A stretch of DNA of 39,240 nt from a virus (IMGVR_UViG_3300036985_004977:1-39240), one strand, 5' to 3'. Positions 11,897 through 36,230 are shown, numbered from the stretch's first letter. Numbers and translations: made by a program. The notes: generated by a model not told the origin, from the sequence alone.

Positions 11897-14800
11897 ATGG
11901 TTCATGATATCAGGTTTATCAATGAGCCGGATACGTTTACCCCGAACTCGTTCAAGAATGAGGCGGGCAACTACTACGCTGAAGAACTCGTAGTTGGTCC
12001 GAAGCCTAGCGTCAAGTTCAAGAGACTTGAGCAGGACAAGGACGTTGCCGACATCAACCTCTCAGTCCTCGGCAACATTGACGCCGGGCACAGCGTCACG
12101 TTCGGCAACCAGGGCGTCGAGGTTGAGATTCGCGAGTATGATGGTAGAGCGACCGGCGAACTCTATTCCATCAACTACGACTACAACACGGAAGAAGGTT
12201 GGATCTTCAACGGACTGGTAGACGGAGTCGTCTACCGATCTGAAGACCATCCTGAAACGTGGTCGGGGATGACCTACACGGAGATCTTCCAAGACCTCCT
12301 CAACGAACAGGTTCCGAATGCGAACTTCGCATTCAATGCAGGCGAATGGAATACCGCTACTGACAACGGTGCGGAAGACAAATACGCCGGTTCCTTCAGC
12401 TTCCGCAACACGCCGCTCACCCAGGCTATCGACCAGTTGGTCAAGCGCCAAGGGAACGTTCTCTGGTGGGTTCAGTGGGATGGGACGAAGTGGGCACTCA
12501 AGTTTCGCAAGCGCGATCTGACGCAGACTGATCAGCAGATTGCGAAGACGACTGGTCCAGCCGCAGCTCGCAACGTTGTCGGTCTTGAGCTGGAGGGCCC
12601 GTCCACCGATCTCCAGATCGCCGGTAAGGTGATCGATCAGGGCGCTGGTTGGAAATATCAGGTCGGCGGTCCGATCTGGCAGCGTGGGATCACAGCTCCG
12701 CCCGGCGGTCCATTCCAGACTGAAGGCTCGCCTCCGCCGCCGATCAGATTCCAGCTCGCTCTGAGCGGAATCGACTCACTTGGTAGCATCGGCAGTTCGA
12801 TCGAGACAGCCGCTCTGAATGCAGGCTATTCGTTCGAAGTCGCAACGAGGCTCTACAATGCGATCGGCTGGTCGAACCTCGTTGCAAAGCTCGGTGACCT
12901 CGCAGGTGATGATGAGCTCAACAACTTCTCACTCGCACAATCAGGCTTCCATGGCGTAGGCAGTCCTGACAATTCAGTTGAGCAGCTTGTCATCGAGATT
13001 GCTGCTCCGATGACGCCAGATGGCGGCGCTGCGACGCAGTGGGGCGCGAATCGAACTCCGCCTGCTGGGATCCCTGATCTCAACGCAACGTTCCCAACCA
13101 AGCCACTCAACAGAGATTCGAGCGCCAACCAGTCGCGTTGGAGAATCGATAAGAATCTTCTCACGCACCCGAACCAATCGTTCATCATTGAACATGCTGG
13201 TTCGCGTCCGCCTGAGGTGATCAGCACTGAATGGTTCGACGTTACGGTTGCCGCTGGGCAGACTGCTCATACTGAGTATCGCACCGCAAGAATGACCTTC
13301 TGTGGTGATCAGGAAGGCAGGCGATACAATGGTTCGGTGATTGCTAAGTGCTACATCAGTGAGCACAGCTACACGAATGCCGGGAAGAGTTGGAAGGCTG
13401 TCGCCACCATCCTGTTCTTCGAGCGCGAATACCGGCAGCTCACGGCAGGTTCGATCGATACGAACGCCGCGAAGATCATCTTCAAGACCAACAACTTTCA
13501 GCTCTACGGCGACTGGAGCGCCGAGGGCCGGAATACTGGCGCAGCGAATGATGCACCGCCAGGAAGTATCGTCAAGTGGGTGAACGATGGCGCTAAGTAT
13601 CGCGGCTCTTCAGCTGCGAAGCCGCAAGTCCTCGTCTACGTCCCGCTCACGAAAGCATTCCAGACCTTCAGTAAGGTTGGCAGCACGCTGTTCGGTCAAG
13701 AGTTCGTGTTTCACGGAACTCTTACTCTCCCGATCCCGGTAGCGATCGAACCGCAGTCGAACACGACTGGCCCATACAGGATTGAACAGGGCGAGTATGA
13801 GGTTCATAACGTCCGCTTCAATGCCATCAGGCAAGACGGATACCCCGAGCCGCCATCGACTACTGATGGGCCGCGCGATGATTTCGATCGCATGCAGGAG
13901 CGTGCGAGCATTCTCCAGCGGCAAGTCGATCCCAGAAGAAACGTTTCAGGTCGCTACCAGATCTTCCCTGGTAACAGAGCCGAGGTTCAGCTTGGTGTGT
14001 TCACCAATGGCGGAACGATCGTCAAGATCCGCCACGATTACGTCCCATACTTCAGAACACAGTTCTGGCTCGAAGGCGATCCGGAGATCGATGAGCTTGA
14101 ACAGAAGGCTCCGCAAGTAGACGTCGGTGAGCTGAAGACTCGAATCCAGATCGGCGATCAGAAGATCGCAGCGATCCAGAAGACGCTTGCTGAAGTCAGC
14201 TCGCTGCTTGTTGCAGATGAAAGAAGCTCAACGCTGAAGGCAACGCCAGGTCTGAAGGGTTCAGACATCGGGTCGATTGAGGCTGGCGTTGAGATCAAGG
14301 ACGTAAACCTTGATCATGAGGACGTATCAGGAGCTAACGTTCCTGACATCAGTGCGCGCGGCTTCGGTGAGCGTGGGCCAGTCAGCCTGATGTATGCGAA
14401 GGGCGCTGACAGGTTCTTCAGCGACGGCGTCGTCATCGATAGCGTTCAGACAGCAGCGCATCTGACGAGACCGCAGAACTTCAGCTCAGCATTCGTCAAG
14501 ATCATCGACAAGACTAGGCCGGTCGTCGGCGGTCAGATGCTCGGGTTCTCACACAACCTGTTCGATCTTGTCAAGACGCACGACACTGGCGGGTTCGAAG
14601 ACGGTCCACGACACCGCGTCTGCTTCAACATCACCGACAGCGGCGGGCCGTCGTTCCTGAACAACTACGGCGGCGATCGGATCAACTTCCGTGATGCTGA
14701 GATTCAGCGATCTGGCTTGCCGCCAATCTCTGAGCGCACTGGCCAGCTGAGTTCTTACATCACGAATCCGCAGAGCTTCGTGACTCGTGTCGGTGGCGGC

Positions 14801-17800
14801 ACGTCAGGTTCAGTCTGGAGCGTTCATCTCGGTGTCAGCCGTGAGACTCAGTTCGGTGCCGGTGCGCTTGAGCTTGTCGACGGTGCCATCATGGGCATCG
14901 GAAAGGAAGTCGGTCAGACGAATGACTACACGTTCGTTCTTGATCTTCGACTGAACTCAAGCAATCCTCGCAACTTTGCGAGAACGTTCAGCAAGACTCC
15001 TCCCACGATCGTTGGCACATACTTCGGGCCCGACCTTGGCGTTCCTGACAATGCTGGCGGCAAGAACGTCCTACTGCGTCACAGAACATATGAGGAATCG
15101 AACCCGAAGCTTCGCGCGCTTTGGGATCTGAGAACTGTCCAGACTGGTGGCGAGCAGCGACATGAACAGAAGCTCACACTCGGTGAAGCGGTCGAGCAGC
15201 AGGTCATCCTCGAGGCCGATAACCTCGCAGGAACTTCGACCTACAAGCCGCTCATCCAGCACAGCTTCCAGGTTGCATACGGTGTCAATGACCGGCGCGC
15301 GTCGATGCGCCACACGCTCTTCGATGCGCCGAACTTCCCTGGGAAGCGACCGCACTTCAAGGTTGACCATGACGGCAGTCCGCTTGGATCGCTGGTCTAC
15401 CTTCAGCTGACTGAACGAAGCTTCATCCCAACAGGCGGGCTCTTCCCGCAACTGACGTCAGAAGAAACGCCACGGTTTGAGGTGCAGGCAGGCGGCAACC
15501 TCACCATAACTGGCACCGATGCTCTCGGTGGTGCCGAAGACGTTTTCATCTACACGACTGGCATTCACGGCTTTGGGCTGACGCAATGGCAGGATACCAA
15601 TAAGAAGACCCTCAGAGTCAACACGAATGGCATCTGGAAGAGAGTAGGCCATTCGCTGTCAGTCTTCTCACAGGGCGGCAGCGTATCGCTGAGCCTGATG
15701 GATTCAAATGAAGACGTCATCAGCACGGTTGTCTTCAGCCCAGGCACAGGAATCGCATGGCCGCCTGATGAAGCTATCACGGCTGTCATCCACGACTTTC
15801 CGCCTCGAGTCGCGGGCAGTAGCGATGATGCGAGAAACTGGAACCCAATCATCCACACCAGTGATGATGATTGGTCGAAGCTCGGCGTTGATATTGACGG
15901 CACTGGCGGCATCTTCGCTGGCGCTGACTATTCGATCACGAAGAAGCTCCTCTTCGGTGACTGGACTGCCACAGCCCCTCACACAACGAACGCGGCGATT
16001 GAGGAAGGCATCAGCGCGCTGGCGAATGCGCACAACAACCTCGTCGACAAGATGCGTGATCAATCGATCACCATCGCTCGACTCGCTGGTCGAATCTGGG
16101 GCGCTGAAGACACCGCTGCCACGACGCCCAAGTTCAACCGTCAGATCAACTTCAAGCTCGACAACCCGACTGGCGGTCTGTCAGCCTGGAAGTTCATCAC
16201 TGATGATACCCAGCTCTTCCTCGGTCGGAAGATTTCTCCAGGCGTAACACAGGAGCATGGGCTCACGATCGACAAGGTCAGTGGCACGATCAAGATCGCC
16301 ACTGCTGGAGATTCGGAGCCTAGGATTGTCGTCACGCATACGGCCAGCACGCTCTGGAAGGCCGAGTTTGTCGAGGGGACGCTTCACAAGTATGGCCTGG
16401 GAGTCGGAAGCGTAACTGTTCCGTCAGGGTATAACGAGGGCGGCGCACAGCGACCGATCCCGTTCGAGTTTGAGCTGCTTCCGAAGAACGGCGATGTTCG
16501 AATCGACCTCTTCTGGAAGGATGTCGACGGCACGACGATTGCCAACGACTACGCGCTCATTCCTTCGATTGAGGGTCCGACTGGCCCGACTGGTCCTGCT
16601 GGGCCGACTGGACCGTCAGGGCCGACTGGTCCGACTGGTCCTACTGGGCCGACTGGTCCTACCGGCCCGACTGGAGCCACGGGTCCGACTGGGCCTGCTG
16701 GTGCTGATGCTGACCAAGGTCCTCCTGGAACTGGTGGCGGTCGTCGTGGGCCGACTGGCAAGCGAGGTCCTACCGGCAAGACTGGCAAGCCGGGCAAGCA
16801 GGGCAAGCCAGGGTTCGCAAGAAAGGGCGCGACCGGGCCGACTGGGCCTACGGGTCCAACTGGAGCCACGGGGCCCACGGGCCCGACTGGGCCGACTGGG
16901 CCTGATGGTGCGATTGGTCCGACTGGGCCTACGGGGCCCGTCGGAGCGACTGGTCCGATCGGACCGACCGGGGCTGCTGGGCCTACGGGTCCGACTGGCC
17001 CGAGCGGCCCGAGCGGTCCCGCTGGCCCGACCGGGCCGACTGGCCCTCAGGGCCCCGGCGGCATCAACGGTGCCACGGGTCAAGATCTCAGGAAGGGCAA
17101 GAACTCCAACCGTGGTCCGAAGGGCGACAGAGGTCCGACCGGCCCTCCTGGAAAGAAGCCTGGTCCGAAGGGCGATAGAGGACTCAGAGGTCTCACGGGC
17201 CCGACTGGTCCGACTGGAGCCACAGGTCCGACGGGACCGACTGGTCCTGATGGTCTCACGGGTCCGACTGGCCCGACTGGTCCGCAAGGCGTCATCGGTC
17301 TCAGAGGATTCGATGGACCTACCGGACCCACTGGGCCGACTGGCCCGACTGGTCCGACTGGTCCGACTGGTCCGATCGGGCCACAAGGCGTTCCTGGAGC
17401 TGATGGAAGCTCAAACGGCCAGTCCTATGGAGGTCGTGGTCGTCCCGGCAAGCAAGGTCCCAGAGGCAAGGATGGAAGGGGCGGCGCTGATGGCAAGGAC
17501 GGCAAGGACGGCAAGCGAGGCAAGGATGGCCCGACTGGTCCGACTGGCCCTACCGGATCGGCTGGCGCAACGGGGCCGACCGGGCCGACTGGAGCGGCTG
17601 GCGCGACTGGTGCGAACGGCCCGACTGGTCCGACTGGCCCTGCGGGCCCTGCGGGTCCTGCTGGACCTGCTGGGCCGTCTGGGGCTGCTGGGCCGTCTGG
17701 GCCTGCTGGGCCTGCTGGGCCGTCTGGGGCTAATGGTGCTGATGGTCCGACTGGACCAGCCGGTCAAACTGGTCCGGCAGGTTCTGATGGATCGGATGGC

Positions 17801-19312
17801 CCGACTGGCCCGACTGGGCCTGCTGGGCCTCCGGGGAGGTCGGCTGTAACCTTGTCAGGAACGCCGTGCTGCGTTCAGACACAGCCTAGCGATCCTCTGA
17901 GTTCGATCTTCGGTTCGAGCAGCAAGTATATCCTCAGGGATTCAGAGGGGCACGAAGAAACGCTGTTCCTCACCGACTTCATCGGTAGCTACGACATGAC
18001 TGAGAGTAACGGCGTCGCAGCTACGCCGAACTCAGGAAGAAAGTTTGACTCCATCACGAATGAGAATGTTCTGCAGGCAGAGGGTGTCAGCCCCTACATG
18101 GTCGACGTCCGAAGCGACGAGGCTCGAGGCGTGCTGTCGCAGAGCCCGAGTGACCCGGCGCTCCTCGGCAAGTATGGGACGGCGGTCGTTGATCCTGACA
18201 CCGGCTTGCTTGATGACGGCACAACCACCATCAGCACGGCGGTCATTTCTCAAGATAATGCACAAGTTGAGATCATCACCGCCAAGGAGCCGGTCAGACT
18301 CGACATTGACTTCAATCTTGCAGTCATCAAGAACGACATTACCAGAACGCTTCCGAGAATCGCGATTAGTGCTGTTGAGTGGTCCTGGAGGTTCGGTGCC
18401 GGTGGTGGCGTTCCTAACGCTGCAATCAACGCGACGACTAAGCAAGCTAACTTCCCTGAGATCAACCCAAGGAACTTCAGCCACAATAACGATGTCTTCA
18501 TTCGCAATACCCTGCGAATGGGCGCACGCGCCCCAGACCTTCTGATCGATGCAGCCGGTCGGTATGTGATCAGTGCTGGCCTCTACGTCAAGCCAACCGC
18601 GATCGACAGCAACGGCAACATTCAGATCAACACCGACAGTGACGCCCGTGTCGCCTACAACGGGATCCACGGCATCATCTTTGGTATGATGAAAGACCTG
18701 CTGGGCCTGGAGATCCGTCCAGATGAGATCATCAGCCGTAGAGCGTTCGGTGTAAAGGGCACGGTGACAGGCGTCACTGGAGCCGGTGGTGGCACTACCG
18801 AGTATGACGTAATCGTCAACAACTTCGGTATCCACGGCGCGCAGTATGGCAACGATGGCGAGTTCACTGACTCATACTTCTACGATAAGAACATCACCCC
18901 TGGCAGTATCGTCTGGGGCGGCGATGTCGGTAAGGCGCGCACACAGCTCAACAGATTCGATGGCCTCGTAGCAACCGGCAACTCAGGCCTCTGGATCGGT
19001 GGACTGAACTATGCAGTCGAAGGCGACAGCGTCGAAGAGGCGGTCACCAAGCTCGACACTCAACTCTTCAAGGCTAGCGGATACTACGCGGCTGAGTTCA
19101 CGCCCACAGTAACATCGCCAGGGTCAGAGAAGACTGAGGTCATCACTCATAATCTGGGTTCACGACCCGTGGTCTTCGTCTACGACAAGGTGACACTCGA
19201 AGAAATCGTTGTCGCTATCACCCACACGAGCACAGATGCCTTCACGGTAGTCTACTCAGGTGAAACCGGAAACAAGTGGGTTGTCGTCGCAACCACGAAT
19301 AATCAAGCATAA
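11897..19312 (+). CDS. giant tail-hub/fiber protein with collagen-like rod
   Basis: A 2,471-residue protein in one unbroken frame. Residues ~1-230 look like a baseplate-hub (gp27/Tal-like) domain: strands followed by [20 protein letters not shown] and a Trp-rich [19 protein letters not shown] end. Residues ~230-1559 are largely beta, of unknown fold. Residues 1560-1982 are collagen-like Gly-X-Y triplets dominated by GPT, with three basic interruptions near 1614-1645, 1729-1766 and 1846-1879. Just after the rod comes TPCCVQTQP (Cys 1991-1992), then a ~480-residue C-terminal domain ending in [16 protein letters not shown], a pattern common at fiber tips. A trimer with hub, rod and receptor-binding head is the simplest model. 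The start follows the upstream stop by one base with a poor ribosome-binding site, so coupling is likely. Confidence 0.8.
16574..17842 (+). repeat. collagen-like tandem repeat region (9-base units)
   Basis: About 1.27 kb of degenerate 9-base units encoding Gly-Pro-Thr and related triplets inside the giant tail gene. Because the units are GGN-CCN-ACN, stop codons are nearly absent in all frames, which creates long false open frames on both strands. The repeat is expected to change length by slipped-strand copying. Codons for the same triplet vary between units, so the repeat is old or under codon selection rather than freshly amplified. Confidence 0.9.
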
Positions 19313-27191: not shown

Positions 27192-27791
27192 ATGCTGAGT
27201 CAGATTCGGTCAGGAATCAATCGTGAAACGTTCTCAGATCTCGCCCGTGACGTCAGCCCTATGCTTCGAAGCTGTATCGCTCCATTCGCGAGAGACGGCA
27301 TGCTACGAAGATTTCAGGGTGCAGACGATCTCTTCAACATTGCGCTCATCAAGCTAGATGAGGCAGCGAAGAACTTCGTGTATGATGAGTCTCTTGATGA
27401 GACTCACAACGAACGAAGGTTCCTAGCGATGGTGAAGACATACGTCCGCAACGCGATGATCGACGAGCAATACGGAGCGAACGTCGGAAAGCGAAAACCA
27501 AGGGGAGCGATCGCATCGATCAGCACATCGGTGTCGCCAGAAGGGGAAGATGATTTTGGGTATGACCCAGAAGACAAGTCGCCTGATGCTCATCAGGTGG
27601 CGGAAGCGAATGAGATTCTCACTATGATTTCGCAGAGCCTCCGGGAAGAAGAGCGAACTATACTGTCGCTCATCTGTGACGGCTATCCTGCAGAGAGGAT
27701 TGCAGGCAAGCTCGGCTTGAACATCAGCCGTGTTCGGTATGTGATCTACGAGAAGATCCAACCAAAGGCCAAACGCTATGCAGAGTGCTGA
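27192..27791 (+). CDS. phage sigma-70-family-like factor
   Basis: A 199-residue protein with the two-domain layout of group 4 (ECF-type) sigma factors. A sigma-2-like helical region (residues ~20-95) contains QGADDLFNIALIKLDEAAK and RFLAMVKTYVRNAMIDEQ. A sigma-4-like helix-turn-helix follows (residues ~140-195): LREEERTILSLICDGYPAERIAGKLGLNIS, then RVRYVIYEKI. The linker is acidic and flexible. Such proteins redirect host RNA polymerase to phage promoters, often late ones. It sits alone after a 74-base gap, breaking the otherwise tight replication operon, so it may be separately regulated. T4 gp55-like late sigma factors are a functional parallel, not a close relative. Confidence 0.7.
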   Translation: MLSQIRSGINRETFSDLARDVSPMLRSCIAPFARDGMLRRFQGADDLFNIALIKLDEAAKNFVYDESLDETHNERRFLAMVKTYVRNAMIDEQYGANVGKRKPRGAIASISTSVSPEGEDDFGYDPEDKSPDAHQVAEANEILTMISQSLREEERTILSLICDGYPAERIAGKLGLNISRVRYVIYEKIQPKAKRYAEC

Positions 27792-28731: not shown

Positions 28732-28955
28732 GCGAGAATCAAGAACTTGTCGATAAGATCCTTCTAGGCAGACACTCGATCTTGAAGTATTTCAAGTATG
28801 ACCATCTTCCCATCCACTTGCAGGAGATCTCTGCTCCGATCAGTGCGATGGCATTCAAGATGGCCGCAACGCTTCCGGCGAATGCTGAGCTGTCAGCTGG
28901 CTTGCGCAAGCTGCTTGAAGCGAAGGACTGTTTCGTCAGAGCACAGATTGGATGA
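28728..28955 (+). CDS. Acb2/Tad1-hairpin-like protein (possible anti-CBASS sponge)
   Basis: A 75-residue protein matching, as I recall it, the pattern of the small Acb2/Tad1 hairpin-domain family of phages: an aromatic-rich start KYFKYDHLPIHLQ (Tyr 24, His 26, Pro 28), a helix (ISAPISAMAFKMAATLP), and the closing helix ELSAGLRKLLEAKDCFVRA (residues 54-72). Known Acb2 proteins form hexamers that bind cyclic di- and trinucleotides and so block CBASS defence; Tad1 relatives sequester cyclic ADP-ribose-type Thoeris signals. The gene is joined by ATGA overlaps to both neighbours, the downstream one being the PHP part of the polymerase. Some family members may have other roles, so an anti-defence function is a strong hypothesis only. 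Confidence 0.6.
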   Translation: MSENQELVDKILLGRHSILKYFKYDHLPIHLQEISAPISAMAFKMAATLPANAELSAGLRKLLEAKDCFVRAQIG

Positions 28956-29821
28956 CATTCGTCCACTTGACATGTCAGAGTGACCGATCAGTCGGGTGGG
29001 GTCTGTGCAAGCCATCAGAGCTTGTCAGCCACTACGCCTCGGTCGGCGCTCGCGCAGCCTGCATCACTGATAGCGGCAACATGAGTGCCGCTGTTCAGCT
29101 CTACAAGGAGTGCAAGGCTGCGAAGATTCTGCCAGTGTTCGGCATGATCGCGAACGTTGTGCCAGACATGTCAGCGAAGCGGCAGGGCAAAGAATCCCTC
29201 ACACTCATCGCGATGAACAGGACAGGGTTCTTCAACCTTGTCAAGATCGCGACGATCGGCGCGATGTATTTCTACTACATTCCGCGAGTCAGCTTCGAGG
29301 TGATAGCCAAGCACAGTGAAGGAATCATCGCTCTCACCGGTGGGCTCGATGGGATAGTGGCAAAGTCATTCATCCGCGATGGCAAGAACGGGATTGCCAA
29401 GTCATCTGAGATGCTCAGAGCTGCGTTCGGAGACAGAGTGTTCCATGAGATTCAGCCGGTGCCAGTCGAGTCACAGAAGCTCTATAATGAGAATCTGATG
29501 ATTTACGGCGATGGTAACTCGCTGCGAATGATCGCAACGGGCACGCCGCTCTATGTGAAGCGAGAGCATGCTGAGCTTCACGAGATGCTCTACAAGGCCA
29601 GGTCATTCAAGAAAGGCGAGTCTATCTATCCGCTGAAGGGAAGCTACCATGTCAAGAGCTATGAAGAGATGCTCGACGATTTCAGCAACCTTCATGGGTT
29701 CGGCGTCTATGAGATGGATGACTTCATCAATCCGATGAAGGCCTCAGATGATCTGCTCGAGGATATCGAGTCGTTCGATCTAAGGGATGGAGTCAAGGTT
29801 CCGCTCTTCCAGTCAACATGA
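28952..29821 (+). CDS. DNA polymerase III alpha subunit, PHP-domain part (separate gene)
   Basis: This 289-residue protein corresponds to the N-terminal PHP domain of DnaE and stops there. The start FVHLTCQSDRS aligns with DnaE FVHLxxHSxYS, ACITDSGNMSAAVQLYKECK with the TD(H)GN-L..V..Y segment, and ILPVFGMI with (I)KPIxG. The end, YHVKSYEEMLDDF to VPLFQ, aligns with the (Y)LKSxxEM and LPxF boundary before the palm. Metal-binding residues are mostly lost: only the first His of the HxH motif remains (His 5; Thr and Gln follow), and the TDHGN His is Ser. Nuclease activity is therefore unlikely and a structural role with the polymerase part is inferred. The gene uses ATGA overlaps on both sides. 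Confidence 0.8.
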   Translation: MTFVHLTCQSDRSVGWGLCKPSELVSHYASVGARAACITDSGNMSAAVQLYKECKAAKILPVFGMIANVVPDMSAKRQGKESLTLIAMNRTGFFNLVKIATIGAMYFYYIPRVSFEVIAKHSEGIIALTGGLDGIVAKSFIRDGKNGIAKSSEMLRAAFGDRVFHEIQPVPVESQKLYNENLMIYGDGNSLRMIATGTPLYVKREHAELHEMLYKARSFKKGESIYPLKGSYHVKSYEEMLDDFSNLHGFGVYEMDDFINPMKASDDLLEDIESFDLRDGVKVPLFQST

Positions 29822-30369
29822 CTTCTCGCCCGGCCCCTCATCCAATTCGGTATCTGCGGCTACCATACTTCTATCTTCCGACGAGGCTGGTGTGCGATCT
29901 CTACAAGAAGAGTCTGATGACTCTGAGGTCGATCCACTGCATCAGAAATGAAGAGCCGACTTTCCATTGGTGGATGCCTGAGGTCAAGGCTTACCTCTAC
30001 CACCCGCTCTTCATGGTCTGGGTCTACAAGAAGGCGTTCAACGAGCTTGTTGAACGCTCATGGAAACCAAAGGTTATCCTGAGTGATGAGATCCTCACGA
30101 TGAAAAGTAAGTCGATCGAAGGACTTCTTCCACCTAGTGATGCTGATCTGGCAGAGGATGTCGTTTGGTGTCTTGAAACCTGGAGGCAAGGTGCTTCCGT
30201 TGGTGGACAGAAACTTCCCAAGAACTACGTTGAGTTAGCTGAGAGATACTATGGTTACACCCCTCAAGAGCAAGCTGTCGAGAGAGTTGAGCAATCCGAA
30301 GGGCGTCATCGTGACGCTGACCGAGAGTGGTATTTCTCTCAAGGTCGCAGGCAACCACTCAAAGGTTGA
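29818..30369 (+). CDS. hypothetical protein inside the split polymerase
   Basis: I do not recognise this 183-residue protein. It begins in an ATGA overlap with the PHP gene. The first ~140 residues look like a real protein: aromatic-rich and partly helical, with FHWWMPEVKAYLYHPLFMVWVYKKAFNEL (residues ~49-77). The last ~40 residues (from VERVEQSEGRHRDADREW) overlap the next gene in another frame and are of low quality. Codon pattern suggests coding shifts to the other frame near 30,250. It may function with the polymerase parts, but only position argues for that. Confidence 0.5.
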   Translation: MTSRPAPHPIRYLRLPYFYLPTRLVCDLYKKSLMTLRSIHCIRNEEPTFHWWMPEVKAYLYHPLFMVWVYKKAFNELVERSWKPKVILSDEILTMKSKSIEGLLPPSDADLAEDVVWCLETWRQGASVGGQKLPKNYVELAERYYGYTPQEQAVERVEQSEGRHRDADREWYFSQGRRQPLKG

Positions 30370-30556
30370 GATCCCATGGGAGATCGTCATCGGATCAGGC
30401 GCTATGCTTGAAGGTCAGAACCGTGAGACGATGATTCGTAGCTACGCGGCAGTCATGCATGCGCTCGGTCACCAGCGATACCTGAAGCGAGTTGCCGATC
30501 GACTTGCTGGAAAGCAAGCGGAGGAGAAGGCACCTGAAGGAGACGCTCCGCAGTGA
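30251..30556 (+). CDS. small hypothetical protein before the clamp
   Basis: A 101-residue protein not recognised. The ATG has GAGAGA just upstream, and the frame opens only 12 bases before it, after a TAG at 30,236-30,238, so this start is nearly forced. It overlaps the previous gene by 119 bases, far more than any other pair here. The N-terminal half is strand-rich (GVIVTLTESGISLKVAG, VEIPWEIVIGSG). The C-terminal half is helical and basic, ending in a charged tail (GKQAEEKAPEGDAPQ). It ends in a GTGA overlap with the beta-clamp gene. Confidence 0.55.
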   Translation: MVTPLKSKLSRELSNPKGVIVTLTESGISLKVAGNHSKVEIPWEIVIGSGAMLEGQNRETMIRSYAAVMHALGHQRYLKRVADRLAGKQAEEKAPEGDAPQ

Positions 30557-31653
30557 TCATCTCACGACAGAAGCTCGTCGATGCGATGGGCATCCTCGGA
30601 ACGGCTGTCGGCAACAAGGTCATGCAGGTTGCCGACTACCTTCACTTTCGTCACGACAAGAAGAACGATTGCATCTTCCTGAGCACGACGAACTTCAACA
30701 CATTCATCACCCTGCGACTTCGTGACCAGTCGCTTGTAGGGTATGATCTTGACGATGTATTCCTGCTGAACTTCAGCCAACTGAACTCGATTCTCCGAGC
30801 CAGCACGACCGAAAATGTCGAGCTGAAGGACTCTGGCGGTTCGATCACAGTCAAGACGAACGGTGAGTATAAGCTCGGGAAGTGGGCGAACGTTGGCGAC
30901 TTCCCGAACAGCAACTTTCAATATGCTGAGGTCGCGAAGTGGGATGTCCCATCAGTCCTCTCATCATGGAAGAAGGTTGCCGTTGCAGTCAGCAAGGATG
31001 TGACGAAGCTGGCATACCAAGGCGTGAACTACGATGGCAACTTCGTGGCCACCGACAATCGTCGTCTTGCCGTTGTGCAGGGTGGCGCTGACCTTGAGAA
31101 GTCAATGCTGCTTCCACTGGCATTCGGAGATGTGCTGAAGCAGTGCCGCAATACGATCAGTGTTGGCCCGAACGAGGCTGGAACTACTGCCGTGATTGTC
31201 TGTGAAGAGATTGGAATGATCGCGTGTGTGCGTTTGCTTGACGCGCAGTTCCAGAAGTATCGTCAGGTTCTTGATACGAAGAAGCCAGGGCTAGTTGTCA
31301 CGGTTTCGAAGTCTGACCTGATGGGTGCCGCTGGGCGACTGTCGACGTTCACTGATGCGATGTTCAAGGTCGTGCAGTTGAGCGTCCATGTCGGTAAAGG
31401 CAAGGCGACACTCGTCCTTGACATCGAGAACCAGGGCGCTGGTGTCGAGTCACTTCCGATCACTTCGATGAGTGACAAGAATCCCACCGACGGGAAGAAG
31501 GCTGAGTTCAAGTATCACATCGAGAACTTGGTTGACGGCGCATCGGTTGTCAACAGCCAAGATGAGGTGACGCTCGACTTCCAGCCGAATGGCTTCCTGT
31601 GGATTGAGGAAGGAACCTTCCGGTATCTTCTGACTCCTATCAAGGAGAAGTGA
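30553..31653 (+). CDS. dnaN: DNA polymerase III beta sliding clamp
   Basis: A 366-residue protein starting at GTG in a GTGA overlap; 366 is also the length of E. coli DnaN. The family pattern is visible in the middle: GVNYDGNFVATDNRRLAVVQ (compare GVxxxxxxxxATDxHRLA). Strand-helix segments of the three clamp domains flank it, and the end YLLTPIKEK replaces the usual (Y)xxMPMRL. As a dimer it would encircle DNA and tether the polymerase. It lies between the two halves of the split polymerase, with no clamp-loader genes in view, so loading by the host or by unseen phage genes is likely. An AAGGAG site near its end serves the next gene. Confidence 0.85.
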   Translation: MIISRQKLVDAMGILGTAVGNKVMQVADYLHFRHDKKNDCIFLSTTNFNTFITLRLRDQSLVGYDLDDVFLLNFSQLNSILRASTTENVELKDSGGSITVKTNGEYKLGKWANVGDFPNSNFQYAEVAKWDVPSVLSSWKKVAVAVSKDVTKLAYQGVNYDGNFVATDNRRLAVVQGGADLEKSMLLPLAFGDVLKQCRNTISVGPNEAGTTAVIVCEEIGMIACVRLLDAQFQKYRQVLDTKKPGLVVTVSKSDLMGAAGRLSTFTDAMFKVVQLSVHVGKGKATLVLDIENQGAGVESLPITSMSDKNPTDGKKAEFKYHIENLVDGASVVNSQDEVTLDFQPNGFLWIEEGTFRYLLTPIKEK

Positions 31654-31654
31654 A

Positions 31655-31942
31655 GTGGACGGACTCTTTGAGGACGATAATGCGGTTCGAGGTAAGCGAA
31701 CTGTCGCTGAGCGTATCCGTGACAAGACGAAGAAAGAGCCGAAGAAGATCGTCCTCAGAGTGAAGCAGGCACCCGACAGCATTGATCCTCAGAAGCTCGC
31801 TAGCATGGCGTCTGCTCCGGACCCTGGTGTAGAGTTCAATGACGTCAACGTCAAGAAGGTCAAGGCAGATCAGGAGAAGAAGGCTGATGATGGAATCATC
31901 GTTCCTCTGATCAACTACGTAGGTGACACTGATGTGCCCTAG
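31655..31942 (+). CDS. small charged hypothetical protein
   Basis: A 95-residue protein starting at GTG, seven bases after AAGGAG. It is highly charged (RTVAERIRDKTKKEPKKIVLRVKQ) and likely partly disordered, with an acidic first ten residues (MDGLFEDD) and an alternating Lys/Glu end. The start could be a clamp-binding type peptide, since GLFEDD resembles short hydrophobic-acidic contacts, but that is speculation. It immediately follows the clamp gene and overlaps the next gene by 11 bases if that starts at 31,932. Confidence 0.55.
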   Translation: MDGLFEDDNAVRGKRTVAERIRDKTKKEPKKIVLRVKQAPDSIDPQKLASMASAPDPGVEFNDVNVKKVKADQEKKADDGIIVPLINYVGDTDVP

Positions 31943-32396
31943 AGGAAAGCCTGGGAAGTTGATCATCCCGAAGTATGAGCAGAAGAAGATCGAGAGGCTT
32001 CAGGAGGATTCTGATATCCCGATGGTTGGGAGCCTGAGGCTCAATCGGCAGCTGATTGAGGACCGCATGCAGGGTTTGGTCACGCATGCGATCCCGACCT
32101 ACATCCTTGAGACCCCAGCTTGGAAGTGGTCGATCGTTCTCTTAAAGAGAGGGAATCCGTTCAGCGTCGTGTCGAGAGCGCACAAGGTCTTCAGCTTCAT
32201 CGAGAAGAAGCCGATGACAACAGCGGAACTTGTGCAAGCTGTAGCTGATGCGAAGATCTACAAAGGGGTCTTTGAGCATCTCCTGATGGTTCATGAAGTC
32301 CTTGTGCAGTGCGTCACTGCCGGACTGCTAATCATGGATGACGAAACCGGTATCTTGTCGGTATGCAAGGGCAAGGCGAGGCCGCGCCGAGTATGA
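31932..32396 (+). CDS. hypothetical protein before the polymerase core gene
   Basis: The start at ATG 31,932 is preferred over a GTG at 31,923 because TAGGTGA lies just upstream. The 154-residue product is basic at the start (PRGKPGKLIIPKYEQKKIERL). Its C-terminal half (residues ~85-150) reads as three helices with two strands: KPMTTAELVQAVADAKIYKG, FEHLLMVHEVLVQCVTAGLLIMDD. That looks like a winged-helix arrangement, though it is not proven. It ends in an ATGA overlap with the polymerase core gene if that begins at 32,393. It may bridge DNA or the clamp to the polymerase, which is inference. Confidence 0.55.
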   Translation: MCPRGKPGKLIIPKYEQKKIERLQEDSDIPMVGSLRLNRQLIEDRMQGLVTHAIPTYILETPAWKWSIVLLKRGNPFSVVSRAHKVFSFIEKKPMTTAELVQAVADAKIYKGVFEHLLMVHEVLVQCVTAGLLIMDDETGILSVCKGKARPRRV

Positions 32397-34534
32397 ATGA
32401 TCTCGAACTCCTCACTTCAATCACCAAGGGGAAGCTCGAGTCTCTGATAGCGTCGAAGAAGATCTTCGCCAACGCATCAGATTATCATGCCCGTCTTGAT
32501 CACGAGCTGAAGGTATTCGCAAGTAGCGGGTATTCTTCGATCATTCTCATCATCGCTGATTACATCAAGTGGGCGAGAGAGAATGGAGTCGTGGTTGGCC
32601 CAGGGCGCGGCAGTGCAGCAGGCTCACTTGTCGTCTACCTGACGGGCATCACAACGATTGACCCGATCAGGTTTGGGTTGATCTTTGAACGCTTCCTGAA
32701 TCCAGAGCGCATCAGCCTGCCGGATATCGACACAGACTTCTCAGACAGAGACAAGGTGATCGAGTATCTGCGCAATCGCTACGGGAAGAACCGAGTCGCC
32801 AAGGTCTGCGTTCCTTCATTCTACAAGCCGCGCAGTGCGATTGATGAATTCTCACGCGCGCTCGAGCTTGAGCTGAAAGAGAACAAGCGCATCACGAAGC
32901 TCATCGGTGATGCTAAGACCTTTGATGAGGCTATCAAGAGCGAGCCAGCACTCGCTGACATCGAGCAAGAGAACGCTGATCTGTTCAGGCTTGCGCGCTC
33001 TGTGCAAGGGTTCGTCCGACAAGTGACGACTCACCCTAGCGCCGTGATCCTGTCGCGCGGACCTATCGGCTCGGAGATCCCGATGCAGAAGCCGCCGGGC
33101 GCTGACTCAGAAGGATACCTCGCAACTAGCTGGGATGGTGAAGAGCTTGATAGCCTTGGCTATGTGAAGCTCGACATCCTGACTGTTGACAACTTGTCGG
33201 TGATCAACAAGTCGATTGAACTCATCAAGCAGCGCCACAAGGTTGACATCGACTTCTACAATCTTGACATCACGGATAGACATGCGCTCGAGGGATTCGA
33301 GCTTGGCGAAACTGTCGCTGTCTTCCAGTTCGAAGAGCAGAAGTCAGTTGGTATCCTGAAGCAGTTGAGTGGCATCACCTTCGAGGAGGTGTGCGCGGTC
33401 AACGCATTGATCCGCCCAGGCATTGACGTAGGAAAGTTCATCAGGTCGCGCAACAGTGGTGAGGTGAAGTATCTCATCCCTGCACTTGAGCCGATCCTGA
33501 AGGAGACGTATGGCGTCATCATCTACCAAGAACAGGTGATGAGGATCTGCGTGGATGTGTGCGGCTTCACGATGGCTGAGGCTGACAAGTTCAGAAAGAT
33601 CATCGCCAAGACGTCTAACCAAGCGAAGGGCTTCGGCGATGAGGACCATGATAGATTCAAGCGAGGGTATGACGAGAAGGGTCAGCCGCCAGAGAAGTTC
33701 GACAGCTTGTGGTCGATGATTCTCGCGTGCCAGTCTTATCTCTTCAACAAGAGTCATGGCTACGCATACGGTTACATCGCGTATGCTGACATGTTCCTGA
33801 AGAGGCACTACCCGATTGAATTCATGTGCGCCGCCTTGCAGACTAAGAGCCGCGAACTATTCATCAAGGAGTGCGACAGGCTAGGCATCAGAGTTTTGCC
33901 GCCAAGCGTGAACAAGAGCGGCACCGATTACGAGATCGAGGATAAGTCCATCAGGATGGGTCTGTCATGCATCAAGCACGTCGGCGCAAAGGCGAAGACG
34001 ATCATGCAGCGCCGCCCATTCAACGATGAGTTTGACTTCCTTGAGCGCGCCAAGCCGAACCAGAAGCAGATCGTGTCGCTGTGCTACGCTGGCGCGCTCG
34101 ACTGCTTCGGCGATAGGCAGGACATCACACGTCGGTTCTGCAAGCAGTCGTTCAACGAAGATGTAACGATAGCTGAGCTTGCCGCTGGCGAGCTGGAGAC
34201 CTTCGGCTTCTACCTAGTCTTCAATCCGCTTGGTCCGTTTGAAGAACGTCTCCAGAACTGCATCACTCCGATGTCGGCTAGGAAGCCGCGTGACGTTCTG
34301 GTCGGTGGGCTGGTCAGCAGGTTACATGAGCACCAGTGCAAGAACGGAAAGATGATGGCGTTCGTGAACATCATCACAATCGATGGTGAGATGGATGTCG
34401 TGGTGTGGCCTGATGATTGGTTTGCTGAGAAGAAGCAGATCAAGGTCGGGCGGGTCATTATCGCGAACGGTCGTAAACTGGACAATGGTGGTTATTCGAT
34501 CAAGCAGAGCGAAGTGCTCAGCGGTGAACAATGA
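32393..34534 (+). CDS. dnaE: DNA polymerase III alpha subunit, palm-to-OB part (separate gene)
   Basis: The start at ATG 32,393 gives an ATGA overlap; an in-frame ATG at 32,363 is an alternative. The 713-residue protein begins at the domain boundary after PHP: YHARLDHELKVF aligns with DnaE (Y)xxRLexELxvI. Catalytic motifs are intact: PGRGSAAGSLVVY (from residue 70), PDIDTDF (Asp 111, 113), VKLDIL (Asp 261, matching E. coli Asp 555), EPTYG-like ILKETYGVIIYQEQVM, and FNKSHGYAYGYIAY. It ends in an OB-like domain (VGGLVSRLHEHQC to residue 713) and lacks the tau-binding C-terminal region of E. coli alpha. It should polymerise DNA with the PHP protein and clamp encoded just upstream. Confidence 0.9.
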   Translation: MNDLELLTSITKGKLESLIASKKIFANASDYHARLDHELKVFASSGYSSIILIIADYIKWARENGVVVGPGRGSAAGSLVVYLTGITTIDPIRFGLIFERFLNPERISLPDIDTDFSDRDKVIEYLRNRYGKNRVAKVCVPSFYKPRSAIDEFSRALELELKENKRITKLIGDAKTFDEAIKSEPALADIEQENADLFRLARSVQGFVRQVTTHPSAVILSRGPIGSEIPMQKPPGADSEGYLATSWDGEELDSLGYVKLDILTVDNLSVINKSIELIKQRHKVDIDFYNLDITDRHALEGFELGETVAVFQFEEQKSVGILKQLSGITFEEVCAVNALIRPGIDVGKFIRSRNSGEVKYLIPALEPILKETYGVIIYQEQVMRICVDVCGFTMAEADKFRKIIAKTSNQAKGFGDEDHDRFKRGYDEKGQPPEKFDSLWSMILACQSYLFNKSHGYAYGYIAYADMFLKRHYPIEFMCAALQTKSRELFIKECDRLGIRVLPPSVNKSGTDYEIEDKSIRMGLSCIKHVGAKAKTIMQRRPFNDEFDFLERAKPNQKQIVSLCYAGALDCFGDRQDITRRFCKQSFNEDVTIAELAAGELETFGFYLVFNPLGPFEERLQNCITPMSARKPRDVLVGGLVSRLHEHQCKNGKMMAFVNIITIDGEMDVVVWPDDWFAEKKQIKVGRVIIANGRKLDNGGYSIKQSEVLSGEQ

Positions 34535-35157
34535 GCGATGAAGATGTGAACGGTTCGACTGCACCATTCGAGCAGTGGGCAGTTGAGAAGTATAAGGAGA
34601 TTCAGAAGTCGATCAACGCCTGCGACGAGAATGGGAATCTCGATCCCGTTCGGCTCAACTACGTGTTGACGATCTTCAGCCAGAACTTTGCTTGGGCGAT
34701 TACGATCCAGGAGATCGAGTCGAATAGGCTGAGCAAGCTCACCCAAGAGTATGACAACTGGTCGAAGAAGAAGTTCAACGAGGCGTTCAGGGTGATCAGA
34801 GAAGAGGCTGGTGGCGGAGGCAGAGCGCCGTCACAAGCGACTGTCGAGGCTCGAGTCGTTGAGATCAACGAGGATGAGCGCGCAATCCTTGTCCATGAGC
34901 TGGAAACACAAAAGAGTCGGGTAGAGCTTTTGCGAGGATTCGTAAAGGTGCTAGACCGGCAGGCGTCTATTCTTCAGACGCTTTCGTCGAACATGCGCAG
35001 TGAGTTGTTCTTTGCATCTGAGCCGACACTTGGTGGCGGCAAAGGTTCACAGGATCACGATGCTGCGCTTCGTAACCGTGCCAAACTTGTCTTGAAGAAG
35101 GCAATGGCGAAACAACCAACTGAAACAGACGAGCTCGAAGAGCCAAAGGAATCATGA
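34531..35157 (+). CDS. conserved-looking hypothetical coiled-coil protein
   Basis: I do not recognise this 208-residue protein. It is largely helical and charged. It has a Gly-rich joint (EEAGGGGRAPSQATVEARV) followed by a long helix ILVHELETQKSRVELLRGF then VKVLDRQASILQTLSSNMRSEL (residues ~125-165), which could form a coiled coil. The end is acidic (ETDELEEPKES). It is coupled by ATGA overlaps to both the polymerase core and the SSB gene. Proteins with this helix pattern are common beside SSB/recombinase genes in phages (my recollection of such loci), suggesting a mediator or scaffold role. Confidence 0.55.
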   Translation: MSDEDVNGSTAPFEQWAVEKYKEIQKSINACDENGNLDPVRLNYVLTIFSQNFAWAITIQEIESNRLSKLTQEYDNWSKKKFNEAFRVIREEAGGGGRAPSQATVEARVVEINEDERAILVHELETQKSRVELLRGFVKVLDRQASILQTLSSNMRSELFFASEPTLGGGKGSQDHDAALRNRAKLVLKKAMAKQPTETDELEEPKES

Positions 35158-36230
35158 GCGGAATGGACATGGGTCGCTTCAAGGAGCGACATGAAGCAGT
35201 GCAGGCAAACAGCGGCGCTGAGTATGCAGACATCCCACGAATCGTTGTCACGAACGGAGCAATCGTCCGAATCGTTGGCGACTTTGCCTCGGTCTGGGAA
35301 CATTTCATCAACCTCGAGAAAGGGTCGCGACCGTTCTACTGTGAGGGTCCTGAGAGCGATTGTCCACTCTGTGCCGCAGCGAATCAGCTGAGCTACAGCG
35401 ACGACAAGGATCAGCAGGAGCTTGGCACCAACTCGCGAGCGAAGGAGAAGTTCTACTTCAACGCGCTCGATCGATCACCGACTGGCCGTGCGTGGCACGA
35501 ATCGAACAAGAAGATGAAGATCCTCTCCCAGAGCGAGAAGAGCATGAGCGTCGGCTCAATGCTGTTCAAGGCGATCGGAGATGTGGTCTCCATGCGCACG
35601 CAGCAGGGTCAGCCTGACGATCCGAATGGGTATGACATCCTCTTGCAGAAGTCTGGCACTGGGATGAAGACTCGGTATGGCGCACAGTTCACCGGATCAA
35701 CGAATCCGCTGACTGAGGATGAGGTCAGCTACGACCGTTGGCCACTCGAGAACCTCGCCAAGGTCAGTCCGCGCGGTGAGCGTGAGACTGCCGCAGCGTT
35801 CCTTCTCGGTCGCACCGCACCGGCACAAGGTCAGCAAGCGCAGTCGCAAGCGAAGCCGAACGCCTACGCGGCACGCGGTCCAGTTGCGCCGCCGCAGCAA
35901 GCCGCCCCGCAGCAAGCCGCCCCGCAGCAAGCCGCAGCTCGCCCACAGACGGGCCCGAGGCCTGCATCAGCGCCAGTGAAGCCAGTGGCTGCGCCTGCTG
36001 CCGCCCCGGCACGGCCAGCGGCACCTCAAGCCGCTCCAGCCAAGCTGGTCATTCCCCAGAAGCCGAGCGAGCATCAAGACACGACGCCGCGTGATGGTTA
36101 CGACGAGTCGAATCACATTCTCGTCCCGTGTTCGAACTGCAACAATGACATGCTCATCGCGATGGAAGACCAACGCGATCTGAAGTGCCATAGCTGCGGA
36201 ACTATCTACGACCACCCGAACAAGGGGTGA
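35154..36230 (+). CDS. gp32-like ssDNA-binding protein with C-terminal zinc ribbon
   Basis: A 358-residue protein in three parts. Residues ~1-215 resemble T4 gp32: a zinc site with His 50, Cys 63, Cys 70, Cys 73, where the His-x12-Cys and CxxC spacings equal those of gp32, followed by KFYFNALDR (compare the core strand with DR). Residues ~220-305 are a Pro/Ala/Gln-rich linker with three tandem 15-base repeats. The last ~35 residues hold a zinc ribbon, Cys 326, 329, 345 and 348 (PCSNCNND, KCHSCGTIYD), instead of the acidic tail of usual SSBs. It should coat single-stranded DNA at the fork and in recombination. The zinc ribbon may replace the tail as the protein-docking element. It sits between the coiled-coil protein and the RecA-like gene. 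Confidence 0.75.
   Translation: MSGMDMGRFKERHEAVQANSGAEYADIPRIVVTNGAIVRIVGDFASVWEHFINLEKGSRPFYCEGPESDCPLCAAANQLSYSDDKDQQELGTNSRAKEKFYFNALDRSPTGRAWHESNKKMKILSQSEKSMSVGSMLFKAIGDVVSMRTQQGQPDDPNGYDILLQKSGTGMKTRYGAQFTGSTNPLTEDEVSYDRWPLENLAKVSPRGERETAAAFLLGRTAPAQGQQAQSQAKPNAYAARGPVAPPQQAAPQQAAPQQAAARPQTGPRPASAPVKPVAAPAAAPARPAAPQAAPAKLVIPQKPSEHQDTTPRDGYDESNHILVPCSNCNNDMLIAMEDQRDLKCHSCGTIYDHPNKG
35892..35936 (+). repeat. three tandem 15-base repeats in the SSB linker
   Basis: CCGCAGCAAGCCGCC occurs three times in a row (the last ends in A instead of C), encoding a QQAAP repeat. It marks a recently expanded segment in the Pro/Ala/Gln linker. Confidence 0.8.

What the first reader, a model, noticed from the sequence alone, without database searches (positions are those of the whole stretch)
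28952..34534. DNA polymerase III alpha split into two genes with the clamp gene and four small genes in the gap
The PHP domain (28,952-29,821) ends at the DnaE LPxF boundary, and the palm-to-OB part (32,393-34,534) begins at the matching start of the palm. About 2.57 kb with the beta clamp and four unrecognised small genes lies between. All reading frames are intact and coupled by ATGA/GTGA overlaps, so this looks like a working arrangement and not decay. Unlike the cyanobacterial split DnaE, no intein halves are seen and the break is at a domain boundary. The small genes in between may be parts of the same polymerase assembly.
Basis: partly seen in the sequence, partly recalled or inferred. 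Interest (0 to 1): 0.92.

Follow-up and report, generated by a model that had tools for sequence, protein, structure and literature searches.

The report
Phage DNA polymerase split into genes
In a small family of phages the DNA-copying enzyme, normally described as one long protein, is made as two separate proteins whose genes lie 2.6 kb apart with the sliding-clamp gene between them, and several unrelated phage lineages have cut the same enzyme at the same point.

Summary
Confirmed. The PHP domain (28952-29821) and the palm-to-OB core (32393-34534) of a DnaE polymerase are two intact genes. They match adjoining parts of the phage DnaE family (phrog_405, 42-329 and 336-1055), with dnaN and four small genes between. 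The record holds no second palm gene. The same order occurs in two diverged phage contigs (L082, L175). All three PHP proteins are 289 aa, and codon-position divergence shows purifying selection on all seven genes, so this is not decay or an assembly error. The split is not unique: at least 10 further IMG/VR contig groups and the mycobacteriophage genus Papyrusvirus also encode PHP separately, upstream of the polymerase. A palm tree needs four changes and rejects a single origin (p-AU 2.5e-14). Only the window's clade has the clamp gene in the gap and a degenerate PHP metal site (1, 2 and 5 of 9 ligands). Best explanation: a two-subunit Pol III alpha in which PHP is a separate, here structural, subunit. 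That the proteins bind is inferred. The small genes are under selection, but their membership of the polymerase is unsupported. No paper found describes this architecture; the full-text library is partial.

The parts
28952..29821 (+). PHP domain of DnaE as a stand-alone gene (289 aa); metal site degenerate (HTWSISGTL against HHDHEHCDH)
   Evidence: PF02811, phrog_405 42-329; PDB DnaE E 4e-30 with the 3-member profile; motif; homologues L082 7989-8858, L175 5122-5991
29818..30369 (+). p2, 183 aa, unknown; conserved only in the window clade; weak fold resemblance to T4 endonuclease V
   Evidence: Conserved in L082 and L175; low-confidence model, pLDDT 50, best fold match 1enk Z 6.9; no profile support
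30251..30556 (+). p3, 101 aa, unknown; overlaps p2 by 119 nt in another frame
   Evidence: Conserved in L082 and L175 with the same kind of overlap
30553..31653 (+). dnaN, beta sliding clamp, between the two polymerase genes
   Evidence: phrog_947 E 1.6e-28; conserved in L082 and L175
31655..31942 (+). p5, 95 aa, GTG start; invariant GLFED near the N-terminus
   Evidence: Alignment of three members; codon positions
31923..32396 (+). p6, 157 aa; predicted winged helix at 57-152; relatives carry a CxxC zinc ribbon at the N-terminus
   Evidence: AlphaFold2 pLDDT 68; generic winged-helix matches Z 8.5; alignment
32393..34534 (+). PHP-less DnaE polymerase: palm, fingers, HhH, OB (713 aa); no C-terminal domain match after OB, no canonical clamp-binding motif
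   Evidence: PF07733, PF17657, PF14579, PF01336; phrog_405 336-1055; PDB 3e0d E 5e-128; motif scan

Best explanation
This is a two-gene C-family replicative polymerase. The PHP domain and the palm/fingers/HhH/OB core, one chain in typical DnaE, are translated from separate genes of one tightly tiled operon and rejoin non-covalently to form the Pol III alpha core, working with the clamp encoded between them. In this phage clade the PHP subunit has lost most metal ligands, so it acts as a structural scaffold, as in E. coli Pol III, and not as a proofreading nuclease. The fission happened at the PHP-palm linker, a junction cut independently in several phage lineages; other genes then came to lie between the halves. 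Shown: two intact genes, conserved order and selection, no second palm gene in the records searched, recurrence, degenerate metal site. Inferred: physical association, joint function, scaffold role, and the order fission first, insertion later.
For: Adjoining coverage of phrog_405 by the two genes. Same seven-gene order in L082 and L175. Second codon position most conserved and third near random in all seven genes; PHP 289 aa in all three. One palm gene and at most one PHP gene in each of ten split records, up to 191 kb. Catalytic aspartate motifs kept in pol. PHP lies upstream on the same strand in every split locus, including Papyrusvirus. Four changes on the palm tree, three forced by starred branches; one clade rejected, p-AU 2.5e-14. 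Degenerate metal site in the window clade only. Precedent for a structural PHP in E. coli Pol III: PMC3666897.
Against: Binding of PHP to pol is untested. PHP evolves faster (40-44% identity) than pol (61-63%), as a released domain also might. The window and L082 records may be fragments, so a second polymerase outside them is not excluded. All clade members are metagenomic.
Confidence: 0.72

Rival explanations
1. The detached PHP protein has left the polymerase and does something else (for example scaffolding another replication or repair protein), while the pol protein works without PHP.
For: Metal ligands are lost in this clade; PHP diverges faster than pol; the genes are 2.6 kb apart.
Against: PHP stays upstream of pol in one operon in every split lineage seen, and no other PHP gene is present. 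PHP is described as strictly conserved in bacterial replicative polymerases and needed for stability and activity (PMC3666897).
Confidence: 0.17
2. A full-length chain is restored after transcription or translation, by an intron, trans-splicing or a programmed frameshift.
For: Cyanobacterial DnaE is split and restored by a split intein; inteins occur inside the split genes of related L249, L290 and L263.
Against: No intein domain in either window gene, no Rfam intron, 2.57 kb of selected coding sequence between the halves, and each half has its own start and stop codon.
Confidence: 0.03
3. PHP, pol, clamp and one or more of p2, p5 and p6 form one obligatory multi-subunit replicase, so the gap genes are part of the polymerase.
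For: The gene set and order are conserved in all three members and under selection. Pol lacks the usual clamp-binding motif, and p5 has an invariant GLFED.
Against: No replication domain in p2, p3, p5 or p6. Other split lineages have unrelated genes, or none, in the gap. Tight packing is common in phage operons.
Confidence: 0.12
4. Artefact: gene decay, frameshift or a chimeric assembly.
For: All clade members are metagenomic contigs.
Against: Three independent contigs with the same order at 27-63% protein identity, intact frames and purifying selection. 0 of 20,000 neutral simulations with half of the sites randomised kept the PHP frame open. The split also occurs in isolated Papyrusvirus genomes.
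Confidence: 0.02

Closest known systems
Papyrusvirus mycobacteriophages (Send513, Papyrus, Riparian): PHP gene gp74, 128-aa gp75 and pol gp76 in Riparian; pol is phrog_11165, PHP matches phrog_7513
   Same: PHP and PHP-less pol are separate neighbouring genes, cut at the same linker
   Different: One unrelated gene in the gap and no clamp gene there; PHP metal site nearly complete (8 of 9); independent origin
Fused phage DnaE (phrog_405; for example Streptomyces Likavirus, Pbunavirus)
   Same: Same domains and order, phage replication polymerase
   Different: One polypeptide; these have PHP and palm in one ORF
E. coli Pol III alpha (DnaE1)
   Same: PHP without its metal ligands, kept as a structural element (PMC3666897)
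   Different: PHP covalently attached; E. coli has a separate epsilon proofreader, while no PF00929 gene was found in the three clade records
Cyanobacterial split DnaE
   Same: alpha subunit encoded by two genes
   Different: There a split intein restores one chain (PMC3919608); here no intein, and the break is at the PHP-palm linker

Membership tests
C-family (DnaE) DNA polymerase | Palm, fingers and HhH domains with catalytic Asp motifs | tested here: met
   PF07733, PF17657, PF14579; PDIDTDF and VKLDIL align with T. aquaticus DnaE
C-family (DnaE) DNA polymerase | PHP domain present | tested here: met
   Present as a separate protein
C-family (DnaE) DNA polymerase | PHP and polymerase domains in one polypeptide | tested here: not met
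   Two ORFs 2.57 kb apart in three contigs; hence a variant
C-family (DnaE) DNA polymerase | Polymerase activity of the assembled protein | not testable with these tools
   Needs biochemistry
Active PHP exonuclease | Nine metal ligands HHDHEH[CH]DH | tested here: not met
   Window 1, L082 2, L175 5 of 9
Split-intein DnaE | Intein halves at the break | tested here: not met
   No intein domain in either gene; PHP ends at the domain boundary
Beta sliding clamp (30553-31653) | Clamp profile over the whole length | tested here: met
   phrog_947, residues 1-365 on profile 5-365/368
T4 endonuclease V family (p2) | Sequence or profile match to Pyr_excise | tested here: inconclusive
   No PF03013 match in the window; hhalign with one family member probability 0.2; fold match only, from a low-confidence model

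The most novel reading that the evidence does not exclude
In the window clade the replicase is a wider multi-protein assembly: a detached scaffold PHP, a PHP-less pol without its own clamp-binding motif, the phage clamp, and p5 (invariant GLFED) or p6 supplying the missing clamp contact in trans.
Probability: 0.12. Interest if true: 0.85.

Novelty: new variant of a known kind. Interest (0 to 1): 0.62.

Why it matters
The bacterial replicative polymerase family is described as four domains in one polypeptide, and the role of a degenerate PHP domain is still debated. Phages that have repeatedly turned PHP into a separate protein offer a natural dissection: they let one ask directly whether the PHP domain must be present, must be attached, or must be catalytic. 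They also give a testable case of how a multi-domain replicase breaks into subunits, and of how the polymerase reaches its clamp without the usual motif.

Tried and rejected
Window clade as the only split: rejected; more split contigs and Papyrusvirus were found. One ancestral split: rejected by AU test; window clade plus the large second clade as one group: p 0.016, so weaker. Pectobacterium phage PcaP2EGY, Gordonia phage Outis, Pseudomonas phage LMA2 and Escherichia phage EC150 looked like candidates but are fused. KLEB27-3 is interrupted by an HNH gene inside the polymerase and P1201 within its polymerase: other split sites; L327 and L331 too. p2 and p6: no convincing relatives in PDB sequences, Pfam, PHROGs or 50,697 phage records (97, 98). 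p2 as endonuclease V: top fold match only, model pLDDT 50, hhalign probability 0.2. p6 winged-helix matches are generic (Z 8.5, many families). More clade members sought with the PHP, p2 and SSB profiles: only L082 and L175. Literature searches for a phage PHP/pol split found none.

Full report
Observation. The window is the whole of a 39,240-base IMG/VR record of a tailed phage (tape measure and major tail protein). At 28952-29821 an intact ORF encodes a PHP domain (PF02811, E 8.7e-27); at 32393-34534 another encodes the palm, fingers, HhH and OB parts of DnaE. Against the phage DnaE family phrog_405 (1190 positions) the first covers 42-329 and the second 336-1055, so one gene has been cut cleanly and the pieces do not overlap. 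Between them lie dnaN (30553-31653, phrog_947) and four small ORFs. Most borders are 4-nt ATGA/GTGA overlaps. No other palm gene is in the record, and no Rfam intron.

Is it functional? Two other contigs keep the arrangement: L082 (18.7-kb contig) and L175 (82,960-bp contig). The order is PHP, p2, p3, dnaN, p5, p6, pol in all; L175 has one more gene after PHP. Amino-acid identities to the window are 40-44% (PHP), 39-42% (p2), 30-36% (p3), 39-41% (dnaN), 27-46% (p5), 32-34% (p6) and 61-63% (pol). In all seven genes the second codon position is the most conserved and the third the least, at 0.19-0.43: purifying selection, small genes included. The three PHP proteins are all 289 aa. The catalytic aspartate motifs of pol align with T. 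aquaticus DnaE. Decay and assembly error are therefore excluded for practical purposes. Each of ten other split records, up to 191 kb, has one palm gene, and nine of them one PHP gene; in the tenth (L206) PHP would lie beyond the contig edge.

How unusual is it? In the first IMG/VR scan the 80 best palm relatives were fused, or cut by a contig edge or a stop. Profile searches then revealed a second, divergent set of split loci (L177, L186, L191, L198, L206, L226, L249; later L263, L265, L290) and L211; in the last scan 62 of 79 loci were fused. In named phages, the mycobacteriophage genus Papyrusvirus (11 records) has PHP as its own gene, a 128-aa gene found only in those records, and a PHP-less polymerase; its nearest relatives, about 60% identical in PHP, carry PHP in a gene annotated as DnaE-like polymerase. 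PHROGs already holds the PHP-less polymerase as phrog_11165. On a palm tree of 120 rows the split state needs four changes, three forced by starred branches. Holding all split polymerases together is rejected (p-AU 2.5e-14); holding the window clade with the second clade is rejected less strongly (p-AU 0.016). The PHP-palm junction has thus been cut repeatedly. Long branches are present and the tree is a quick one, so the exact number of events is uncertain.

What differs between lineages. Gap contents vary from none (L211, L265 and L290 have adjacent or overlapping ORFs) through one gene (L249, Papyrusvirus) to many (L198, with a DnaQ-like exonuclease). Only the window clade has dnaN in the gap, and no phrog_947 clamp was found in the second-clade or L211 records searched. 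The PHP metal site reads HTWSISGTL in the window, HCTYLNGMH in L082 and HHRNETDDH in L175, against HHDHEHCDH in cellular DnaE; the other split PHPs whose site is complete keep 8 or 9 of 9. The window-clade records contain no PF00929 proofreader. In E. coli the degenerate PHP supports the stability and activity of Pol III (PMC3666897), which is the model for a scaffold role here. The window-clade polymerase also lacks the canonical clamp-binding motif between HhH and OB, where many fused and cellular enzymes have QLSLF-like sequences.

The small genes. p6 is a predicted winged helix, with a zinc ribbon in L082 and L175 but not in the window. p2 gave a poor model whose best fold match was T4 endonuclease V (Z 6.9), without profile support. 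p5 has an invariant GLFED near its N-terminus, which might contact the clamp; this is speculation. Since other split phages have unrelated genes, or none, in the gap, the small genes are not required for a two-gene polymerase in general; whether they matter in this clade is open.

Mechanism. Most likely the PHP and pol proteins are made from one operon and reassociate through the normally intramolecular PHP-palm contact, and the complex works with the clamp made between them. Gene order, selection and recurrence are shown; association, scaffold role and joint action are inferred. Trans-splicing and intron removal are unlikely: no intein or intron at the boundary, and the inteins found in related L249 and L290 (pol) and L263 (PHP) lie inside the halves.

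Novelty. Literature searches of a 5.39-million-paper open-access library did not find a description of PHP as a separate gene in phage DnaE; a standard account states that the four domains lie in a single polypeptide (PMC3666897). Most subscription papers are not held, so this is absence in that library only. I rate it a new variant of a known kind.

Noticed in passing
window 30251-30369; L082 9276-9367; L175 6771-6940: p2 and p3 overlap by 119, 92 and 170 nt in different frames, and both frames are conserved in all three phages: a conserved overlapping gene pair.
   Followed up: partly
L173 4995-5930 (Mycobacterium phage Riparian gp74) and relatives: The stand-alone PHP of Papyrusvirus is annotated as 'DNA polymerase III sliding clamp' in most records; by profile it is the PHP domain of DnaE.
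   Followed up: yes
L263 3175-5304; L249 8932-12345; L290 5902-9807: Intein domains inside a stand-alone PHP gene (L263) and inside PHP-less pol genes (L249, L290), away from the split point.
   Followed up: partly
L198 6571-7170: A DnaQ-like exonuclease (PF00929 E 6e-10) lies in the gap between PHP and pol, a candidate proofreader encoded there.
   Followed up: partly
window 11897-19312: A 2471-aa tail fibre protein with long collagen-like GPTGPTG tracts.
   Followed up: no
window 35154-36230: A gp32-like single-strand binding protein (PF08804 E 3.5e-4) with a proline/alanine-rich linker and a C-terminal four-cysteine zinc-ribbon-like end, conserved in L082 and L175.
   Followed up: no
window 27192-27791: Small sigma-factor-like gene (weak sigma-70 region 4 match) upstream of the polymerase operon, conserved in L082 and L175.
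   Followed up: no
L327 5059-9217; L331 5023-9602: DnaE split at another place: PHP plus the first part of the palm in one ORF, the rest downstream.
   Followed up: no
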